In this document: positions 5,627 through 43,724 of the stretch, piece by piece
Layout: each line of letters begins with the position of its first letter
Numbering within the stretch: position 1 is the first letter of the stretch
From: Bacillus sp. F19
Lineage (GTDB): Bacteria; Bacillota; Bacilli; Bacillales; Bacillaceae
Direction: 5' to 3'
Assembly: GCA_023823795.1 (NCBI GenBank)
Contig: CP085710.1
Coordinates: forward strand, 2,506,001-2,570,000
Length of the DNA: 64,000 nucleotides
The notes under the pieces: model-generated
What the model saw: the letters and a program-made list of their open reading frames with translations, nothing else
Database searches by the model: none
What the model was told of the DNA's origin: nothing
Made by a program: the position numbers and the translations under genes

Positions 5627-5698
5627 ATAAGCAAAGTCATACACACTAAGGGTACCTGACTTATTCTTCCCACCGAAAAACAAGCAAACAATCATTAA

Positions 5699-5860
5699 AA
5701 GCAGGTTTCCTGGCTTGCGCTTCATTTTCCATTGAACCTCCCCAACTTGAAAAGTCAGTGGCGTCTCAACTGAATCTGCGCTTACAGTAGCGGGGGCTGC
5801 ACCGGATTCTAACCGGTTTCCCTATTATCCTGAACACATCAGGCACTTTTAAAGAATCAT
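5699..5860 (-). promoter_or_regulatory. Cobalamin (AdoCbl) riboswitch
   Basis: The minus strand contains the conserved B12 box AGCCAGGAAACCTGC (5701-5715) and the conserved core region GGGAAACCGG, then TGCAGCCCCCGCTACTGTAA. These are hallmarks of the cobalamin riboswitch family. It sits upstream of btuR with a terminator between, so it should switch off the whole btuR-cobQ-cobT-btuFCD operon when corrinoid is plentiful. The exact 5' boundary is estimated. Confidence 0.95.
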
Positions 5861-5944
5861 ATTTTTTGTTCATTGTAATCTATAAATCTGGAAATGTCAT
5901 CAACTTCTTTTTCCTGAATCTGATAAAGGACTCAATTAGTCAGG

Positions 5945-37782: not shown

Positions 37783-38067
37783 ATGTCAGGAAGGAAGAAC
37801 ATTAAAAAAAGGCGGCGCTGTATTTTCCCTGAATACAGATGGTGTGGTCCCGGCTGCAGCGGCCCAGGACTTCCGATCAACGATGTGGATGCCTGCTGTC
37901 AAAGACATGACCGCTGCTTAGACCGCGGAATTTCATCTTGCGAATGCGATTATGCTTTTATTGAGTGTCTTCGCCCGAAAATCAACAACCATACTCAAAA
38001 GGGACGAAACGCTGCGCTTATGTACAAAGTAATGAAATTAAAAACATTATTTACATGCGGCGGCTGA
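37783..38067 (+). CDS. Small phospholipase A2-like protein
   Basis: A 94-residue Cys-rich basic protein with a phospholipase A2-type core: RWCGPGCSGPG (calcium-loop-like) and ACCQRHDRCLD with the His42-Asp43 catalytic pair, plus ten cysteines in all. There is no signal peptide; the N-terminus is SGRKNIKKRRRC. Some bacilli have similar small proteins of unknown role, possibly in spores. Catalysis is not proven, because a short protein may lack the second Asp partner. RBS AAAAAGGAG. Confidence 0.75.
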   Translation: MSGRKNIKKRRRCIFPEYRWCGPGCSGPGLPINDVDACCQRHDRCLDRGISSCECDYAFIECLRPKINNHTQKGRNAALMYKVMKLKTLFTCGG

Positions 38068-38831: not shown

Positions 38832-40751
38832 CTATTCTTCTCGTTCAATGGTTAATTCAGAATGTCTCTTGTTCATCTGCACTGCTTTTTTTCGATTTTC
38901 GGCTGATTCGAAAATGATGTCAAAATCGTAATCCTCAGGATAAAGGTCTTTAGCTGAAATATGAAGCTGCATTCGTTTATGATTGACGGATCGTTTTGTC
39001 CCTTTCACAAAGACCGTGTAATTTCCGCCTTTATCTGGACCAGTATAAACGATAGCATGCTCATTTGTTGCTTTTATAAGCACGTTATCTCCTTTTAAAA
39101 AAGTCTGAACCTCCGCCTCTTTTGCTTTTGGCTGTTTCGTCTTGTAACGATTAATTGAGATTTGTTTATCCAGTTCCTTTTTTTCATATAAATCATATTG
39201 ATCTTTCCCATACTTTTTTGTCTCTTTATAAGTGATAGCATGGGCTTTTTCAATTAATTCGGGATGCATGCCTAAGCGCAGTGCGATTGAAAATGCCTGA
39301 CTCTCTCCGCCTTCGCCTATCTTCAGATTATATGTGGGCTGAAGGGTCTCTAAATCAAAATCCATCGATCCATTTATGAATCCTTCTTCACTTTCAGCAA
39401 AATCCTTTATTTCACTGTAATGTGTGGTGGCAAGCAAGGTGGCGCCTTTTTGATGAATCTTTTCAAGGATGACACTTGCAAGCCCCATTCCTTCACCCGG
39501 ATCTGTTCCTGAACCTAATTCGTCAAGCAAAACAAGGCTATATTCATTTGTTTTCTTTAAGATTGAAATAATATTCGTCATGTGAGAACTAAACGTGCTC
39601 AAGTTTTGTTCAATGCTTTGACCATCGCCAATATCCAGCAGAATCTGCTGATAGATGCCGATATAACTTTCCTTATCAGCAGGTATATGAAAACCGGATT
39701 GCGCCATCAGAACAAGTAGACCTACCGTTTTTAAAACCACCGTTTTTCCGCCCGTATTTGGACCGGTAATGACGAGTGCCTGAAAATCCTTGCCGATTTC
39801 GAAAGTCAAAGGAACGGCTTTGCTGCCTAAGAGCGGATGCTTGGCATTTTTAAGATAGATCATTTTTTGATCATGAACAGCTGGTGCGGTTCCTCCAATA
39901 GCGCGGCTGTATTTTGCTTTTGCAAATAAGACATCGTAGTGCACCATCACTTCTATAGATTGAAGAAGCTGTTTTTCATGGGACTCTGCCAAGCCTGTTA
40001 AATAGCTTAAAATCTTTTCAGACTCCAGCTCTTCCTGTGACAATAAAAGATTGATCTGATCCTGAATGGCGGCTGCATCTTCCGGTTCAACATAAAGTGT
40101 TGAACCGGAGGCTGATGCATCAAGAACGGCTCCTCTGATTTTTCCTTTATATTCTTTTTTAACAGAAACACAAAAGCGGCCGCCTCTTTCACTTATAATT
40201 GCATCCTGCAGATAGCTCTTATATTTTGAAGACTTAATGATGGAATTCAGTTTTTCTTTCAAACGTTCATTTGCAATCGCCAGCTGCTTTCTTACTTTTG
40301 ACAGTTCTTTGTTCGCCATGTCGTCAACTCTTCCGTTGCGTATGCATCTGATGATTTCAGCAGCGATCTCCGGAAGCTCTTCAATCCCAAATACATACGA
40401 AGAAACACGAGGTGCCAGCATTACTTTATCTTTCATGAAACGTTTCATTTTTAAGCCATCTTCAATAAATGACAGGAGCTGGGAAAAGTGATGCGGTCTT
40501 AAAGCAACACCTTTATTGAACTGCTTTACGATGGCTTCAATGCCCTCAAGTCCTGAAATAGGAACACTGGAACTTTTCTCTATAATTGCTGCTGCTTCGT
40601 CTGTCTCTGATAAAAGTGCCTGTATTTGCTTTACATGATTAAGCGGCATAATGGCTAAAACACGCTGCCTGCCTGAATCTGTCATTGCATAAGTGCTGAT
40701 TGTTTCTTTTATAGTACAGTAATCTAAAATGTTAAAAGTATTGTCGTTCAT
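38832..40751 (-). CDS. MutS2-like ATPase with KOW region, lacking the Smr domain
   Basis: A 639-residue MutS-family ATPase of the MutS2 branch. It has a core and clamp helices (residues 1-300), Walker A GPNTGGKTVVLKT (330-342), Walker B LVLLDELGSGTDPGEG (406-421) and TTHYSEIKDF. A KOW-like beta region FLKGDNVLIKATNEHAIVYT follows (551-597). The C-terminal Smr nuclease domain of full MutS2 is absent. B. subtilis MutS2 has been reported to act on collided ribosomes, so this paralogue could be a ribosome-directed factor; that is inference. ATG 40751 has AAGGAGG upstream; the longer frame to 40880 has no start signal. A long leader with two terminators precedes it. Confidence 0.85.
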   Translation of the reverse strand: MNDNTFNILDYCTIKETISTYAMTDSGRQRVLAIMPLNHVKQIQALLSETDEAAAIIEKSSSVPISGLEGIEAIVKQFNKGVALRPHHFSQLLSFIEDGLKMKRFMKDKVMLAPRVSSYVFGIEELPEIAAEIIRCIRNGRVDDMANKELSKVRKQLAIANERLKEKLNSIIKSSKYKSYLQDAIISERGGRFCVSVKKEYKGKIRGAVLDASASGSTLYVEPEDAAAIQDQINLLLSQEELESEKILSYLTGLAESHEKQLLQSIEVMVHYDVLFAKAKYSRAIGGTAPAVHDQKMIYLKNAKHPLLGSKAVPLTFEIGKDFQALVITGPNTGGKTVVLKTVGLLVLMAQSGFHIPADKESYIGIYQQILLDIGDGQSIEQNLSTFSSHMTNIISILKKTNEYSLVLLDELGSGTDPGEGMGLASVILEKIHQKGATLLATTHYSEIKDFAESEEGFINGSMDFDLETLQPTYNLKIGEGGESQAFSIALRLGMHPELIEKAHAITYKETKKYGKDQYDLYEKKELDKQISINRYKTKQPKAKEAEVQTFLKGDNVLIKATNEHAIVYTGPDKGGNYTVFVKGTKRSVNHKRMQLHISAKDLYPEDYDFDIIFESAENRKKAVQMNKRHSELTIEREE

Positions 40752-40764
40752 TTGAATATCCTCC

Positions 40765-40839
40765 TTAGTAACGAAAAAAAGCCGCAGTGAACAAATGTTC
40801 ATTGCGGCTGAAATGGTATATAGAGCGCTTTTTCTCCAT
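40765..40839 (-). CDS. Leader peptide 2 of the mutS2-like gene (24 residues)
   Basis: ATG at 40839 with AAAAAAGGATGAGAGCAGT upstream; it encodes MEKKRSIYHFSRNEHLFTAA and then FFRY. The frame covers the whole of terminator 2 and stops exactly before the GGAGG of the main gene (TAAGGAGG). Translation through it would melt terminator 2 and bring ribosomes to the main start. Confidence 0.55.
   Translation of the reverse strand: MEKKRSIYHFSRNEHLFTAAFFRY
40774..40808 (-). terminator. Leader terminator 2
   Basis: GCCGCAATGAACA and TGTTCACTGCGGC form a 13-position stem (one wobble pair) with a short loop, followed by seven U residues, only about 25 bases before the start codon of the mutS2-like gene. 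Confidence 0.9.
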
Positions 40840-40865
40840 ACTGCTCTCATCCTTTTTTGGACAAA

Positions 40866-40892
40866 TAAAAAACTGTGCATAAAAACACAGCT
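40866..40892 (-). terminator. Leader terminator 1
   Basis: CTGTG and CACAG pair over a TTTTTATG loop, followed by six U residues, about 180 bases into the leader and before the second short frame. Confidence 0.75.
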
Positions 40893-41015
40893 GAGCAGGC
40901 ACCTCTCATATGCTATGATTTGTTCTTAACTCATCGATCTGCGCATAGTTAAATAAGCGCTGCAAAAACTTTTTTTTGCACGCTGGACACAGAGATGACC
41001 GTATGAAATTACGGA

Positions 41016-41039
41016 TTAGTTAAGAACGACACCTAACAT
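41016..41039 (-). CDS. Leader peptide 1 of the mutS2-like gene (MLGVVLN)
   Basis: ATG TTA GGT GTC GTT CTT AAC TAA, seven codons and a stop, with AAAAAGGGG nine bases upstream. Its last codons form one arm of the main leader stem, so a ribosome sitting here would open that stem. The small size fits the leader peptides of antibiotic-inducible genes. Confidence 0.55.
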   Translation of the reverse strand: MLGVVLN

Positions 41040-41095
41040 ATAACAAAACCCCTTTTTAAGGATGATTGTATGGAGAATGATAAAAGCTTACCTCA

Positions 41096-41124
41096 AATTT
41101 ACTTCACTTTCCTTTTCTTGTCAA
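41096..41124 (-). promoter_or_regulatory. Sigma-A-type promoter of the mutS2-like gene leader
   Basis: On the minus strand a consensus -35 TTGACA (41119-41124), 17 bases, then -10 TAAATT (41096-41101). Transcription would start near 41089. Confidence 0.65.
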
Positions 41125-41237: not shown

Positions 41238-41948
41238 ATGGAGTTTACCCTAAGTCCCTTAGGTGATGCCGCAATAATTATCGAACTTGGAAAGAAAATT
41301 GAAATGAATATTCATGAAAACGTTCAGCATGTTTTCTCCTATTTTGATCATCATTCGCCTGATTGGGTGATTGAATGCATTCCTGCGTTCACAACAGTCA
41401 CGCTTATTTATGATCCTATTAAAGCAGGCAGGGCCAACCAGCATTCCCTTCCCTATCAGATTGTTTCAGAATACATAACAGAAACGATGAAAACCTTGGA
41501 TAAAACACAATCTGAGTTTGGAAGAACAATTGAAATCCCAGTGTGCTATGGCGGAGAGCTCGGTCCGGATCTGGAATTTGTAGCAGAGCATAACAAGTTA
41601 TCAGCTGAGGAAGTGATCGGCATTCATTCAGCCAACGAATATTTAGTGTATATGATTGGCTTTGCTCCCGGTTTTCCTTATATTGGCGGAATGTCTGAAA
41701 AAATCGCAGCACCAAGAAGAAGTTCTCCAAGATTAAAGATACCCGCTGGCTCAGTTGGAATTGCAGGAAGCCAGACAGGTATCTATCCGATTGAGACACC
41801 AGGCGGATGGCAATTAATTGGACAAACCCCTTTAAAACTGTTTCAGCCTGAAAGGAAATCTCCTAGTCTATTAAAAGCCGGGGATGTTATTCAATTCAAA
41901 CCGATCTCATATGATCAATTTCTTGAAGAAAAGGAGAAAATGATATGA
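41238..41948 (+). CDS. pxpB: 5-oxoprolinase subunit PxpB (KipI family)
   Basis: A 236-residue subunit of the ATP-dependent 5-oxoprolinase PxpABC, which opens 5-oxoproline to glutamate. Family stretches are PLGDAAIIIELG at the start, YMIGFAPGFPYIGGM near residue 138, and SVGIAGSQTGIYPIETPGGW near residue 172. In B. subtilis the homologue was first named KipI, an inhibitor of the sporulation kinase KinA. The start has TTAGGAGGTGCTGAA. It overlaps pxpC by four bases (ATGA). Confidence 0.95.
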   Translation: MEFTLSPLGDAAIIIELGKKIEMNIHENVQHVFSYFDHHSPDWVIECIPAFTTVTLIYDPIKAGRANQHSLPYQIVSEYITETMKTLDKTQSEFGRTIEIPVCYGGELGPDLEFVAEHNKLSAEEVIGIHSANEYLVYMIGFAPGFPYIGGMSEKIAAPRRSSPRLKIPAGSVGIAGSQTGIYPIETPGGWQLIGQTPLKLFQPERKSPSLLKAGDVIQFKPISYDQFLEEKEKMI

Positions 41949-42940
41949 CGATTAAAGTCAAAAAATCAGGACTTCTGACATCTATTCAAGATCTTGGCAG
42001 ATATGGTTCCCAAAAGTATGGTGTAATCGCAAGCGGTGCGATGGATACCCTCTCTCACAGAATCGCCAACATGCTTGTAGGAAATTCTGAGAACGAGGCA
42101 GCAGTTGAAATGACGATGCTCGGAGCCCATTTTGAATTTCAGTCAGATTCACTGATCTCTATTTGCGGCGGAGATTTATCACCCGTTCTGAATGACCGGC
42201 CTGCAAAAATGTGGCGGCCGTTATTTGTGAAAAAAGGCAGTTTGCTTACATTTGGAAGGGCTAAAAAAGGATGCAGAGCTTATCTTGCAGCCGCTGGGGG
42301 ATTTGATGTTCCCGAGGTGATGGGAAGCAAATCAACCTATTTACGAGCAGGAATTGGCGGATATGCAGGAAGAGCTATCGAAAATGGGGACATACTATCT
42401 TTTGGAAAGATGTCTGAGCAGTCCACTACCCTTTTTGAACGTTTTTTTGACTCTGCTCCTTATTCGGAAATTGATTGGTCCGCATCTCCGGAATTTTTTC
42501 CTTTCTTAAGAGAGGATGTATGCGTACGTGTTGTAAAAGGAAGGCAATTTGATGACTTTACAGAGGAAAGCCAATCTCTGATCTTCTCTGAACCTTTTAA
42601 AATCACGCCTCAATCTGACCGCATGGGCTACCGGATGGAAGGTCCCAAGCTTACATTAGAAAACAAAGCAGAAATGATTTCGGAAGCTGTCACCTTTGGA
42701 ACCATTCAAGTTCCTGCTGACGGGAACCCGATTATTCTGCTTGCTGACAGGCAAACAACGGGAGGATATCCGAAGATCGCACAGGTAGCATCTGTCGATT
42801 TGCCCTACCTTTCCCAATTCAAACCTGGAGAAGTTGTTCAATTTAAGGAAATATCGCTCGACGAAGCTCAGGAGCTGCTGATTGATAGAGAAAGAAGATT
42901 GCAGCACTTAAAACAGGGGCTGTTCCTAAAAACGAGTTAG
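41945..42940 (+). CDS. pxpC: 5-oxoprolinase subunit PxpC (KipA family)
   Basis: A 331-residue biotin-dependent-carboxylase-like domain protein that pairs with PxpB. Typical sequences are [19 protein letters not shown] (residues 9-27), [17 protein letters not shown], and [20 protein letters not shown] near residue 265. It is full length and translationally coupled to pxpB. Confidence 0.95.
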
Positions 42941-42953
42941 GGAGATGATTATC

Positions 42954-43724
42954 ATGCATAAAGTTGATTTAAACTGCGATATGGGAGAAAGCTTTGGCGC
43001 TTATAAAATGGGGAATGACGAAGAAATATTGAATTACGTTTCTTCGGCTAATATTGCCTGCGGCTTTCATGCCGGTGATCCCTCAACAATGAGAAAAACG
43101 GTTAAACTTGCGATTGATAAAAGCGTTGGAATCGGGGTCCATCCCGGTTTTAATGATTTATCAGGGTTTGGAAGAAGAAATATTGACCTCACTCCTAAAG
43201 AAGTATATGACCTGGTTGTCTATCAAATTGGAGCATTATCTGGCTTTGCCGCAGCTGAAGGAGGATCTCTCCAGCATGTGAAACCGCACGGTGCCCTTTA
43301 TAATATGGCTTCTGTAGACAGCCACATCTCAGAAGCCATTGCTGAGGCGGTTTACAAAGTTGATTCGAACCTGATTCTCTTCGGCCTTGCCGGCAGTGAA
43401 TTAATTAAAGCCGGAGAAAAATTAGGTTTAAAAACTGCAAGTGAGGTCTTTTCTGATAGAACGTATCAGGATAATGGCACGTTAACCTCAAGACGAGACC
43501 CCCGCGCATTGATTGAGGATCACGAAACGGCAGTAGCTCAAGTGATACGAATGGTGAAAGATGGGAAAGTCACATCGCTTTCCGGAAAGAACCTGTCAAT
43601 TAAAGCAGATACTATTTGCATTCATGGAGATGGCGCACATGCCCTTCAATTTGCAAAATACATATCCGATGCCCTGCAGCATGCAGGAATAAGCATCAAA
43701 AAAGCAAGCAAAGTTCTTACTTAA
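42954..43724 (+). CDS. pxpA: 5-oxoprolinase subunit PxpA (LamB/YcsF family)
   Basis: A 256-residue protein beginning [20 protein letters not shown]. It also has [20 protein letters not shown] near residue 38 and [12 protein letters not shown] near residue 100, all diagnostic of the YcsF family. It is the third subunit of 5-oxoprolinase. I choose ATG 42954, nine bases after AGGGAG; an ATG at 42945 is too close to that box. Confidence 0.95.

What the first reader, a model, noticed from the sequence alone, without database searches (positions are those of the whole stretch)
40752..41124. MutS2-like gene behind a leader with two short reading frames and two terminators
Seen in the sequence: a TTGACA/TAAATT promoter, a seven-codon frame (MLGVVLN) with its own ribosome-binding site, and a branched structure closed by that frame's last codons. 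Then come a terminator, a 24-codon frame that spans a second terminator, and the stop of that frame directly before the GGAGG of the main gene. Known: this layout is typical of genes induced when ribosomes stall, such as erm and ABC-F type resistance genes. Inference: the downstream ATPase, MutS2-like with a KOW region but without Smr, is a ribosome-directed factor switched on by translation stress or by an antibiotic. I know of no described attenuator for this gene type.
Basis: partly seen in the sequence, partly recalled or inferred. Interest (0 to 1): 0.85.

Follow-up and report, generated by a model that had tools for sequence, protein, structure and literature searches.

The report
Ribosome-sensing leader of MutS2-like gene
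In front of a gene for a shortened ribosome-rescue protein sits an RNA switch that appears to be read by the ribosome itself, and relatives of the same switch sit in front of known antibiotic-resistance genes, which suggests that this protein is made when antibiotics block protein synthesis.

Summary
The gene (window 38832-40751, minus) encodes a 639-aa MutS2 paralogue without Smr. Its leader is recognisable in 80 of 80 relatives fetched from named genomes: 74 by the short frame, six by covariance model. The frame has a ribosome-binding site, nearly always ends Val-Leu-Asn-stop, and its last codons form a long-range stem, P1. P3 covaries. A TTNTTT motif, the published NusG pause signal, follows a hairpin in most leaders.

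A model trained only on MutS2-type leaders also finds the leader before tet(M), BpsA-type genes, an ABC exporter, a GNAT, an MFS pump and an APH gene beside an ABC-F gene. A broader model adds tet(W)-type and further ABC-F genes; a tet(O) record has it too.

Best reading: a ribosome-mediated transcription attenuator of the vmlR/tlrB/hflXr kind that induces a putative ribosome-splitting factor under translation inhibitors. No induction data exist. At equilibrium terminator 1 folds with or without a ribosome; any switch must be kinetic.

The parts
41096..41124 (-). Promoter: TTGACA (41119-41124), 17 nt, TAAATT (41096-41101)
   Evidence: not significant in the window alone; site of >=10/12 in 60 of 75 leaders vs 5.6% of shuffles, exact TTGACA in 52 of 75 vs 3%
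41049..41054 (-). SD AAGGGG of the 7-codon frame
   Evidence: SD-like sequence in 75 of 75 pattern-positive leaders
41016..41039 (-). 7-codon leader frame MLGVVLN-stop (uORF)
   Evidence: last three codons nearly invariant, residues 2-4 vary
41018..41027 (-). P1, 5' arm GUUCUUAACU (last codons and stop of the uORF)
40922..40931 (-). P1, 3' arm AGUUAAGAAC
40999..41014 (-). P2 hairpin with conserved loop AAYUNNAUA (41002-41010)
   Evidence: role unexplained
40988..40998 (-). P3, 5' arm
   Evidence: own partner stronger than swapped partner in 72 of 73 leaders
40932..40943 (-). P3, 3' arm
40957..40983 (-). P4 hairpin (predicted)
   Evidence: minimum-energy fold; boundaries vary among relatives
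40951..40956 (-). TTATTT, matches the NusG-dependent pause motif TTNTTT published for vmlR
   Evidence: TTNTTT in the region in 59 of 75 leaders vs 22.5% of shuffles
40912..40917 (-). Putative antiterminator strand CAUAGC, complementary to the 5' arm of terminator 1
40866..40891 (-). Terminator 1: hairpin 40872-40891 (-8.5 kcal/mol) and T-run
40774..40809 (-). Terminator 2: hairpin 40780-40809 (-17.8 kcal/mol) and T-run
   Evidence: how readthrough passes it is unexplained
40765..40839 (-). 24-codon frame MEKKRSIYHFSRNEHLFTAAFFRY-stop across terminator 2; not conserved, probably not a general part
40760..40766 (-). SD AAGGAGG of the main gene
38832..40751 (-). MutS2-like gene, 639 aa: MutS2 core and ATPase, predicted KOW-like barrel (about 556-598), tail LYPEDYDFDIIF, no Smr

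Best explanation
The leader is a ribosome-mediated transcription attenuator. Inferred course: RNA polymerase pauses at TTATTT after P4, so that a ribosome can load on the 7-codon frame. If translation is normal the ribosome leaves, P1 (in the window extended over the start region of the frame) forms and withholds the antiterminator strand CAUAGC, and terminator 1 ends transcription. If a translation inhibitor holds ribosomes on the frame, P1 cannot form, CAUAGC pairs with the 5' arm of terminator 1 before its 3' arm is made, and the polymerase reads on into the gene. The product, a MutS2 core with a KOW-like domain but no Smr, most likely then splits stalled ribosomes: an inducible paralogue of the housekeeping factor, as HflXr is to HflX. 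Shown here: conservation of frame, P1 and P3; a pause-type motif and an antiterminator match in many leaders; linkage to one MutS2 subfamily; the shared leader on known ribosome-protection genes. Inferred: pausing, stalling, induction, and the activity of the protein.
For: Linkage: leader in 80 of 80 relatives from named genomes. In the window's family R1 hits 30 of 81 genomes, all 30 upstream of this gene; 36 of 81 genomes carry the gene and 0 of the 45 others have an R1 hit. Pairing: P1, P3. Antiterminator match of the CAUAGC, CGUAGC or CACGG type in 37 of the 69 leaders with a terminator 1. Kinetics: in RNA ending before the 3' arm of terminator 1, antiterminator pairing averages 0.24 unmasked; 0.45, 0.61, 0.66 with a ribosome masked at stop, start, both; 0.24 with a control mask; it rises by more than 0.15 in 28, 47, 49 and 0 of 62. 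Pause motif. Shared leader: R1, built from MutS2-type leaders only, also finds BpsA-type genes, tet(M), an ABC exporter, a GNAT, a DHA2-type MFS gene and an APH gene beside an ABC-F gene; R2 adds tet(W)-type and ABC-F genes. Tn916 with tet(M) is said to be controlled by transcriptional attenuation partly relieved by tetracycline or other translation inhibitors (passage of PMC9154091). Deletion of mutS2 in B. subtilis causes hypersensitivity to chloramphenicol, tetracycline and erythromycin (passages of PMC10897456).
Against: No expression data. Folding of complete leaders at equilibrium gives terminator 1 with or without a ribosome (0.95 vs 0.93, n = 62). The stop-codon mask alone frees the antiterminator in only 28 of 62 and lowers it in some (L036, L059, L082). 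In 32 of 69 leaders the best antiterminator match is another, often short stretch, and no swap control was made for it. How readthrough passes terminator 2 is not explained. TTNTTT is absent from the region in 16 of 75. The tet(M) matches to R1 are individually weak (37 bits, E 6.5e-4 to 9.3e-4 per genome). L065, L075 and L079 did not reach the R1 threshold; L065 rests on the frame and a partial P1. Both models hold base pairs for P1 only.
Confidence: 0.78

Rival explanations
1. A small-molecule riboswitch: the conserved P1-P4 domain binds an antibiotic or metabolite directly, and the short frame is incidental.
For: Conserved P2 loop AAYUNNAUA and a strong branched fold; no Rfam family at gathering score in the leader.
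Against: A frame with an SD in 75 of 75 pattern-positive leaders, its last codons inside P1; the conserved TTNTTT block matches a published pause signal. In hflXr, a comparable leader, ErmC-modified ribosomes abolished induction (passage of PMC6310831).
Confidence: 0.08
2. Amino-acid attenuation: the Val/Leu/Asn codons sense lack of their charged tRNAs.
For: Val5, Leu6 and Asn7 are nearly invariant in 73 seven-codon frames.
Against: The same codons are the 5' arm of P1, so RNA pairing explains them; other members with the same RNA read MRQGILK or MIKGVLK; the downstream genes are not amino-acid genes.
Confidence: 0.04
3. The attenuator is real, but the MutS2-like protein acts on DNA (recombination or repair) and is made under translation stress for that purpose.
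For: Matches MutS and MutS2 families named for DNA repair or endonuclease.
Against: The closest characterised relative with a solved complex, B. subtilis MutS2, is on collided ribosomes (7QV3, 8QPP, 8R55; passages); other genes with the leader protect ribosomes or look like drug resistance genes.
Confidence: 0.15
4. The 24-codon frame is a second control: its translation through terminator 2 keeps that hairpin open, as a frame overlapping a terminator might do at tet(M).
For: It spans terminator 2 with an SD in the window, L004 and L005; annotated tet(M) leader peptide lies between the 7-codon frame and tet(M).
Against: Not conserved: 4 of 74 loci with an SD, one of them frame-shifted.
Confidence: 0.12

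Closest known systems
Leader of tet(M)-type ribosomal protection genes (transcription attenuator of Tn916)
   Same: R2 matches leaders of tet(M), tet(O) and tet(W)-type genes: SD, 7-codon frame MRQGILK, P1 GGUAUUCUUAAA/UUUAAGAAUACC, P2 loop; the tet(M) leader also finds tet(S) at 80.5% identity.
   Different: The annotated tet(M) leader peptide (WP_001791010.1) starts 92 nt after the end of the 7-codon frame; other terminator sequence, other gene.
vmlR leader of B. subtilis (ABC-F)
   Same: uORF with SD inside an anti-antiterminator, antiterminator, intrinsic terminator, pause hairpin and TTATTT NusG pause motif (passages of PMC9226507).
   Different: uORF there is Met-Ile-Asn; no homology of the leader was tested; R1 and R2 did not report it in the family search.
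tlrB (yxjB) leader of B. subtilis
   Same: Short leader peptide and NusG-dependent pausing needed for induction (passages of PMC6851288).
   Different: 9-residue peptide with an RYR arrest motif; the main SD is also sequestered; a methyltransferase gene.
HflXr of Listeria
   Same: Inducible paralogue of a ribosome-splitting factor behind a transcription attenuator with a short frame (passages of PMC6310831).
   Different: GTPase HflX, 14-residue frame with RLR motif; no shared leader sequence shown.
MutS2 of B. subtilis (7QV3, 8QPP, 8R55)
   Same: MutS2 core and ATPase, 389 bits over residues 4-516; fold match TMq 0.74 to 7QV3.
   Different: No Smr; tail LYPEDYDFDIIF instead; the KOW region aligns only weakly by sequence (2.3 bits); the canonical paralogue in the same genome has no such leader.

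Membership tests
ribosome-mediated transcription attenuator (vmlR/tlrB/hflXr type) | Short frame with its own SD upstream of the gene | tested here: met
   (sequence level; translation not shown)
ribosome-mediated transcription attenuator (vmlR/tlrB/hflXr type) | Stem that involves the frame (anti-antiterminator) | tested here: met
   P1
ribosome-mediated transcription attenuator (vmlR/tlrB/hflXr type) | Mutually exclusive antiterminator and intrinsic terminator | tested here: inconclusive
   match of the CAUAGC/CGUAGC/CACGG type in 37 of 69; kinetic folding in favour, equilibrium folding not
ribosome-mediated transcription attenuator (vmlR/tlrB/hflXr type) | NusG-type pause motif (as in vmlR) | tested here: met
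   TTNTTT in 59 of 75, 22.5% of shuffles; pausing itself not shown
ribosome-mediated transcription attenuator (vmlR/tlrB/hflXr type) | Antibiotic-dependent readthrough | not testable with these tools
   needs expression data
tet(M)-type leader (same RNA family) | Covariance-model match with frame, P1 and P2 loop | tested here: met
   R1, built without tet leaders, 37 bits; R2, which includes one tet(M) leader, matches tet(M) and tet(O)
MutS2 (TIGR01069) | MutS2 core and MutS_V ATPase | tested here: met
   596 bits, cut-off 400; MutS_V 122 bits
MutS2 (TIGR01069) | KOW-like domain | tested here: inconclusive
   five strands at 556-598 in the model; sequence match 2.3 bits only
MutS2 (TIGR01069) | C-terminal Smr domain | tested here: not met
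   not in Pfam scan; Smr-type motif in 0 of 80 relatives and 0 of 41 census proteins, present in the canonical paralogue; no Smr fold in the model
erm-type translation attenuator | SD of the main gene sequestered and freed by stalling | not tested
   no comparative test of the main SD was made

The most novel reading that the evidence does not exclude
One homologous sensor RNA, built around a very short frame whose last codons close P1, is a common module of intrinsic and mobile ribosome-drug resistance in Bacillota: it serves tet(M)-type genes, several ABC-F genes, exporters, BpsA-type polyamine synthases, and an Smr-less MutS2 subfamily that would be a new class of inducible, ribosome-splitting resistance factor. 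At tet(M) the sensing frame would then be the unannotated MRQGILK frame, not (or not only) the annotated leader peptide.
Probability: 0.6. Interest if true: 0.92.

Novelty: new variant of a known kind. Interest (0 to 1): 0.8.

Why it matters
It predicts a function and an inducer class for a widespread MutS2 subfamily for which my searches list no description. It links the regulation of tet(M)-type genes to chromosomal genes of soil bacteria, so that the sensing frame of a major resistance gene becomes directly testable. It suggests that branched polyamine synthesis may belong to a translation-stress response in some Bacilli. It gives a searchable model for further genes of this response.

Tried and rejected
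Rfam: at gathering scores only a cobalamin riboswitch elsewhere in the window; in the leader at relaxed thresholds only matches far below gathering scores. RNAalifold on the first MAFFT alignment found 7 pairs of P1 and no compensatory pair, because the middle is poorly aligned; P3 was tested per sequence instead. Equilibrium folding with ribosome masks: negative. Leader-peptide strings in papers: no hit. The 24-codon frame as a general part: rejected. Amino-acid attenuation: judged unlikely (see rivals). R2 hits L218 and L219 (E 0.019, 0.049) lie in unrelated sequence and are taken as chance. I took the conserved TTATTT block for part of an aptamer until passages of the vmlR paper named it as the NusG pause motif.

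Limits: E-values of both models are rough. R2 was built with some of the non-MutS2 leaders, so only the finds of R1 are independent of them. Downstream genes were named by BLAST to my own references, by identical N-termini, or by family scans of representatives, not by a scan of each. The name tet(W)-type is recalled from the sequence; the scan gives the TetM/TetW/TetO/TetS family above its cut-off and Tet(M) below its cut-off. Shuffles keep single-base composition only.

Full report
What is there. The window lies in a 5.59-Mb genome; the closest named relatives of the gene are in records of Metabacillus idriensis and Peribacillus frigoritolerans (both 91% identity). On the minus strand 40751-38832 encodes a 639-aa protein that matches TIGR01069 MutS2 (596 bits, cut-off 400) over residues 2-515 and MutS_V, with no Smr match. 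The genome also has a canonical 794-codon MutS2 with the Smr-type motif LDLRGER.

Conservation. One scan of named genomes kept the best 80 of 106 relatives. A strict pattern finds the short frame in 75 of 81 leaders, window included: 73 with seven codons, two with six. The six loci that it missed (L056, L068, L070, L071, L072, L083) match model R2 at E 6e-11 or better. So the leader is recognisable in all 80, from Bacillaceae to Clostridium and Paenibacillus; three of them (L065, L075, L079) did not reach the R1 threshold and rest on the frame and a P1 partner. In the 73 seven-codon frames Val5 (GTT) occurs in 73, Leu6 in 71, Asn7 in 73 and TAA in 72; residues 2-4 vary. The last codons are also the 5' arm of P1, so constraints on peptide and on RNA cannot be separated within this set. 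In other gene types the peptide end differs (for example ILK, VLK) while P1 is kept by matching changes.

Structure. P1: 95.8% of cells paired over 62 leaders, changes on both sides in 5 of 10 pairs, 0 of 500 shuffles as high; slid versions pair 28-49%. P3: own strands pair better than swapped ones in 72 of 73 leaders, mean -12.9 vs -5.5 kcal/mol (two of 75 were dropped because the loop pattern was not found). P2 holds the conserved loop AAYUNNAUA, whose role I cannot explain. TTNTTT occurs between P2 and the 3' arm of P1 in 59 of 75 leaders (22.5% of shuffles), and in 43 of these 59 a hairpin ends 0-3 nt before it; at the aligned columns it is exact in 43 of 62. This is the NusG-dependent pause motif of the vmlR leader (passages of PMC9226507); in tlrB, NusG-dependent pausing between leader peptide and gene is essential for induction (passages of PMC6851288). 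The block that looks like an aptamer loop is thus more simply a pause signal.

Switch. Behind P1 the best match to the 5' arm of terminator 1 is of the CAUAGC, CGUAGC or (in Clostridia) CACGG type in 37 of the 69 leaders in which a terminator 1 was found; in the other 32 it is another, often short stretch. Complete leaders folded at equilibrium give terminator 1 with or without a ribosome (0.95 vs 0.93; 62 of 75 leaders had a usable terminator 1): a negative result. RNA folded as it is just before the 3' arm of terminator 1 appears gives a difference: antiterminator pairing 0.24 without a ribosome, 0.45 with one at the stop codon, 0.61 at the start, 0.66 with both, 0.24 with a control mask inside the domain; it rises by more than 0.15 in 28, 47, 49 and 0 of 62. 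In the window the values are 0.10, 0.78, 0.88, 0.81 and 0.10. The model is therefore kinetic and is not proven by these numbers.

Linkage to the gene. In the window's family (81 genomes) R1 hits 30 genomes once each, all 30 upstream of the MutS2-like gene. By length and coverage 36 of 81 genomes carry it; none of the 45 others has an R1 hit. R2 adds two of the remaining six at E 0.010 and 0.049; all six show, by eye, another short frame, a P1-like pair and two TTTATTT-like motifs upstream, with R2 matches of E 1e-4 to 0.13 in a small search. The canonical mutS2 of the window's genome has no such frame upstream and no R2 match.

Other genes with the leader. R1 was built from 52 MutS2-type leaders only. 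In 398 Bacilli genomes it gave 87 rows, and I looked downstream of all: 2 are antisense echoes; of the other 85, 60 precede MutS2-like genes, 20 BpsA-type genes, 2 tet(M), 1 a GNAT gene, 1 a DHA2-type MFS gene and 1 an unidentified gene. In 398 Bacillota genomes, an overlapping sample, R1 gave 19 rows: 11 MutS2-like, 4 ABC exporter, 2 tet(M), 1 APH gene followed by an ABC-F gene, 1 unclear (L174). R2 on the same sample gave 37 rows: 17 MutS2-like, 5 tet(W)-type, 5 ABC-F, 4 ABC exporter, 2 tet(M), 1 APH/ABC-F, 1 partial match before a further ABC-F-like gene (L217), 2 unclear (L174, L201). Two smaller classes: 9 of 37 genomes, all before the ABC exporter; 10 of 63 genomes, 9 before MutS2-like genes and 1 (L189) not classified. 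Family scans of representatives: L159 Tet(M) 1514 bits (cut-off 1420); L203 TetM/TetW/TetO/TetS family 1285 (1100); L200, L202, L204, L205 and L207 ribosomal-protection-like ABC-F 392-502 (380); L161 ABC_membrane 174 (28); L173 APH 127 (23); L128 BpsA_C 140 (27); L127 Acetyltransf_3 77 (25); L157 EmrB-type MFS 325 (230), with Lmr(B) below its cut-off; L149 none in Pfam. With E of 0.01 per genome a few chance rows are expected in 398 genomes, and the tet(M) matches to R1 are weak one by one (37 bits); but each has the SD, the 7-codon frame MRQGILK, P1 with matching changes and the P2 loop, directly upstream of tet(M). Among plasmids the tet(M) leader finds 883 records, including tet(S) at 80.5% and Campylobacter records at about 80%, one of which I opened and which bears tet(O). 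R2 matches this tet(O) and one plasmid tet(M) leader (E 2e-10 and 8e-12 in a two-locus search), both with MRQGILK. The annotated tet(M) leader peptide starts at locus base 546, the 7-codon frame ends at 454 and is not annotated.

The protein. AlphaFold2 from 23 sequences gives mean pLDDT 82; five strands at 556-598 look like a KOW barrel, and the tail shows no Smr fold. The best solved matches are MutS2 entries (9A5O, an integrative model; 7QV3, the collided-disome complex). Relatives share a tail of the type LYPEDYDFDIIF in place of Smr; the Smr-type motif occurs in 0 of 80 relatives and 0 of 41 census proteins. For B. subtilis MutS2 a Walker B mutant is erythromycin-sensitive while KOW and SMR mutants are only very modestly so, and the authors suggest that KOW-uS10 contacts may suffice for partial activity without SMR (passages of PMC10897456). 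An Smr-less paralogue made on demand is therefore plausible as a ribosome splitter; this is inference.

Literature. Searches that joined MutS2 with leader, attenuation, antibiotic, paralogue, Smr or term-seq terms listed no paper that, from title and start of abstract, describes a leader of this gene type; only open-licence papers are held and only the top of each list is shown. A study of RNA motifs in 50 genomes does not name mutS in its main text. The 1992 paper on tet(M) attenuation is not held, so I cannot say what it reports on the 7-codon frame; searches on tet(M) leaders and on the peptide string showed no mention in what I saw.

Open points. Which drug, if any, induces; how terminator 2 is passed; what the P2 loop does; why BpsA-type genes share the leader.

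Noticed in passing
L125, L128-L133, L135-L137, L139, L140, L143, L146, L148, L153, L220, L227-L229: The same leader precedes BpsA_C-type (branched-chain polyamine synthase) genes, in several genomes beside a second copy before the MutS2-like gene.
   Followed up: partly
L211-L216: Divergent Smr-less mutS2-like genes have leaders with other short frames (for example MSVYRF, MSAVGTK) and, by eye, two TTTATTT-like motifs in a row.
   Followed up: partly
L209, L210, L217: An ABC-F-like gene in the window's own genus has a leader with a short frame MMPSYC, two TTATTT-type motifs and a complement of the frame (AGACGGCAT or similar) shortly before the gene.
   Followed up: partly
L057, L058, L064, L066, L067, L070: In Clostridia another short frame with an SD seems to lie between terminator 2 and the MutS2-like gene (seen by eye).
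   Followed up: no
L174 and L201: Leader matches (R2 E 2.1e-8 and 1.3e-5) without a clear resistance gene directly downstream.
   Followed up: no
window 40774-40809 and its counterparts: Terminator 2 has a recurring apical sequence (GAAC..GUUC type) in many relatives; meaning unknown.
   Followed up: no
window 5683-5865 (-): Cobalamin riboswitch, 123 bits.
   Followed up: no
window 37783-38067 (+): Small Cys-rich protein of 94 aa that looks like a phospholipase A2-type protein (CCxxHD); recalled motif, not searched.
   Followed up: no
window 41238-43724 (+): Divergent genes that look like PxpB, PxpC and PxpA (5-oxoprolinase); recalled, not searched; no sign of a link to the leader.
   Followed up: no
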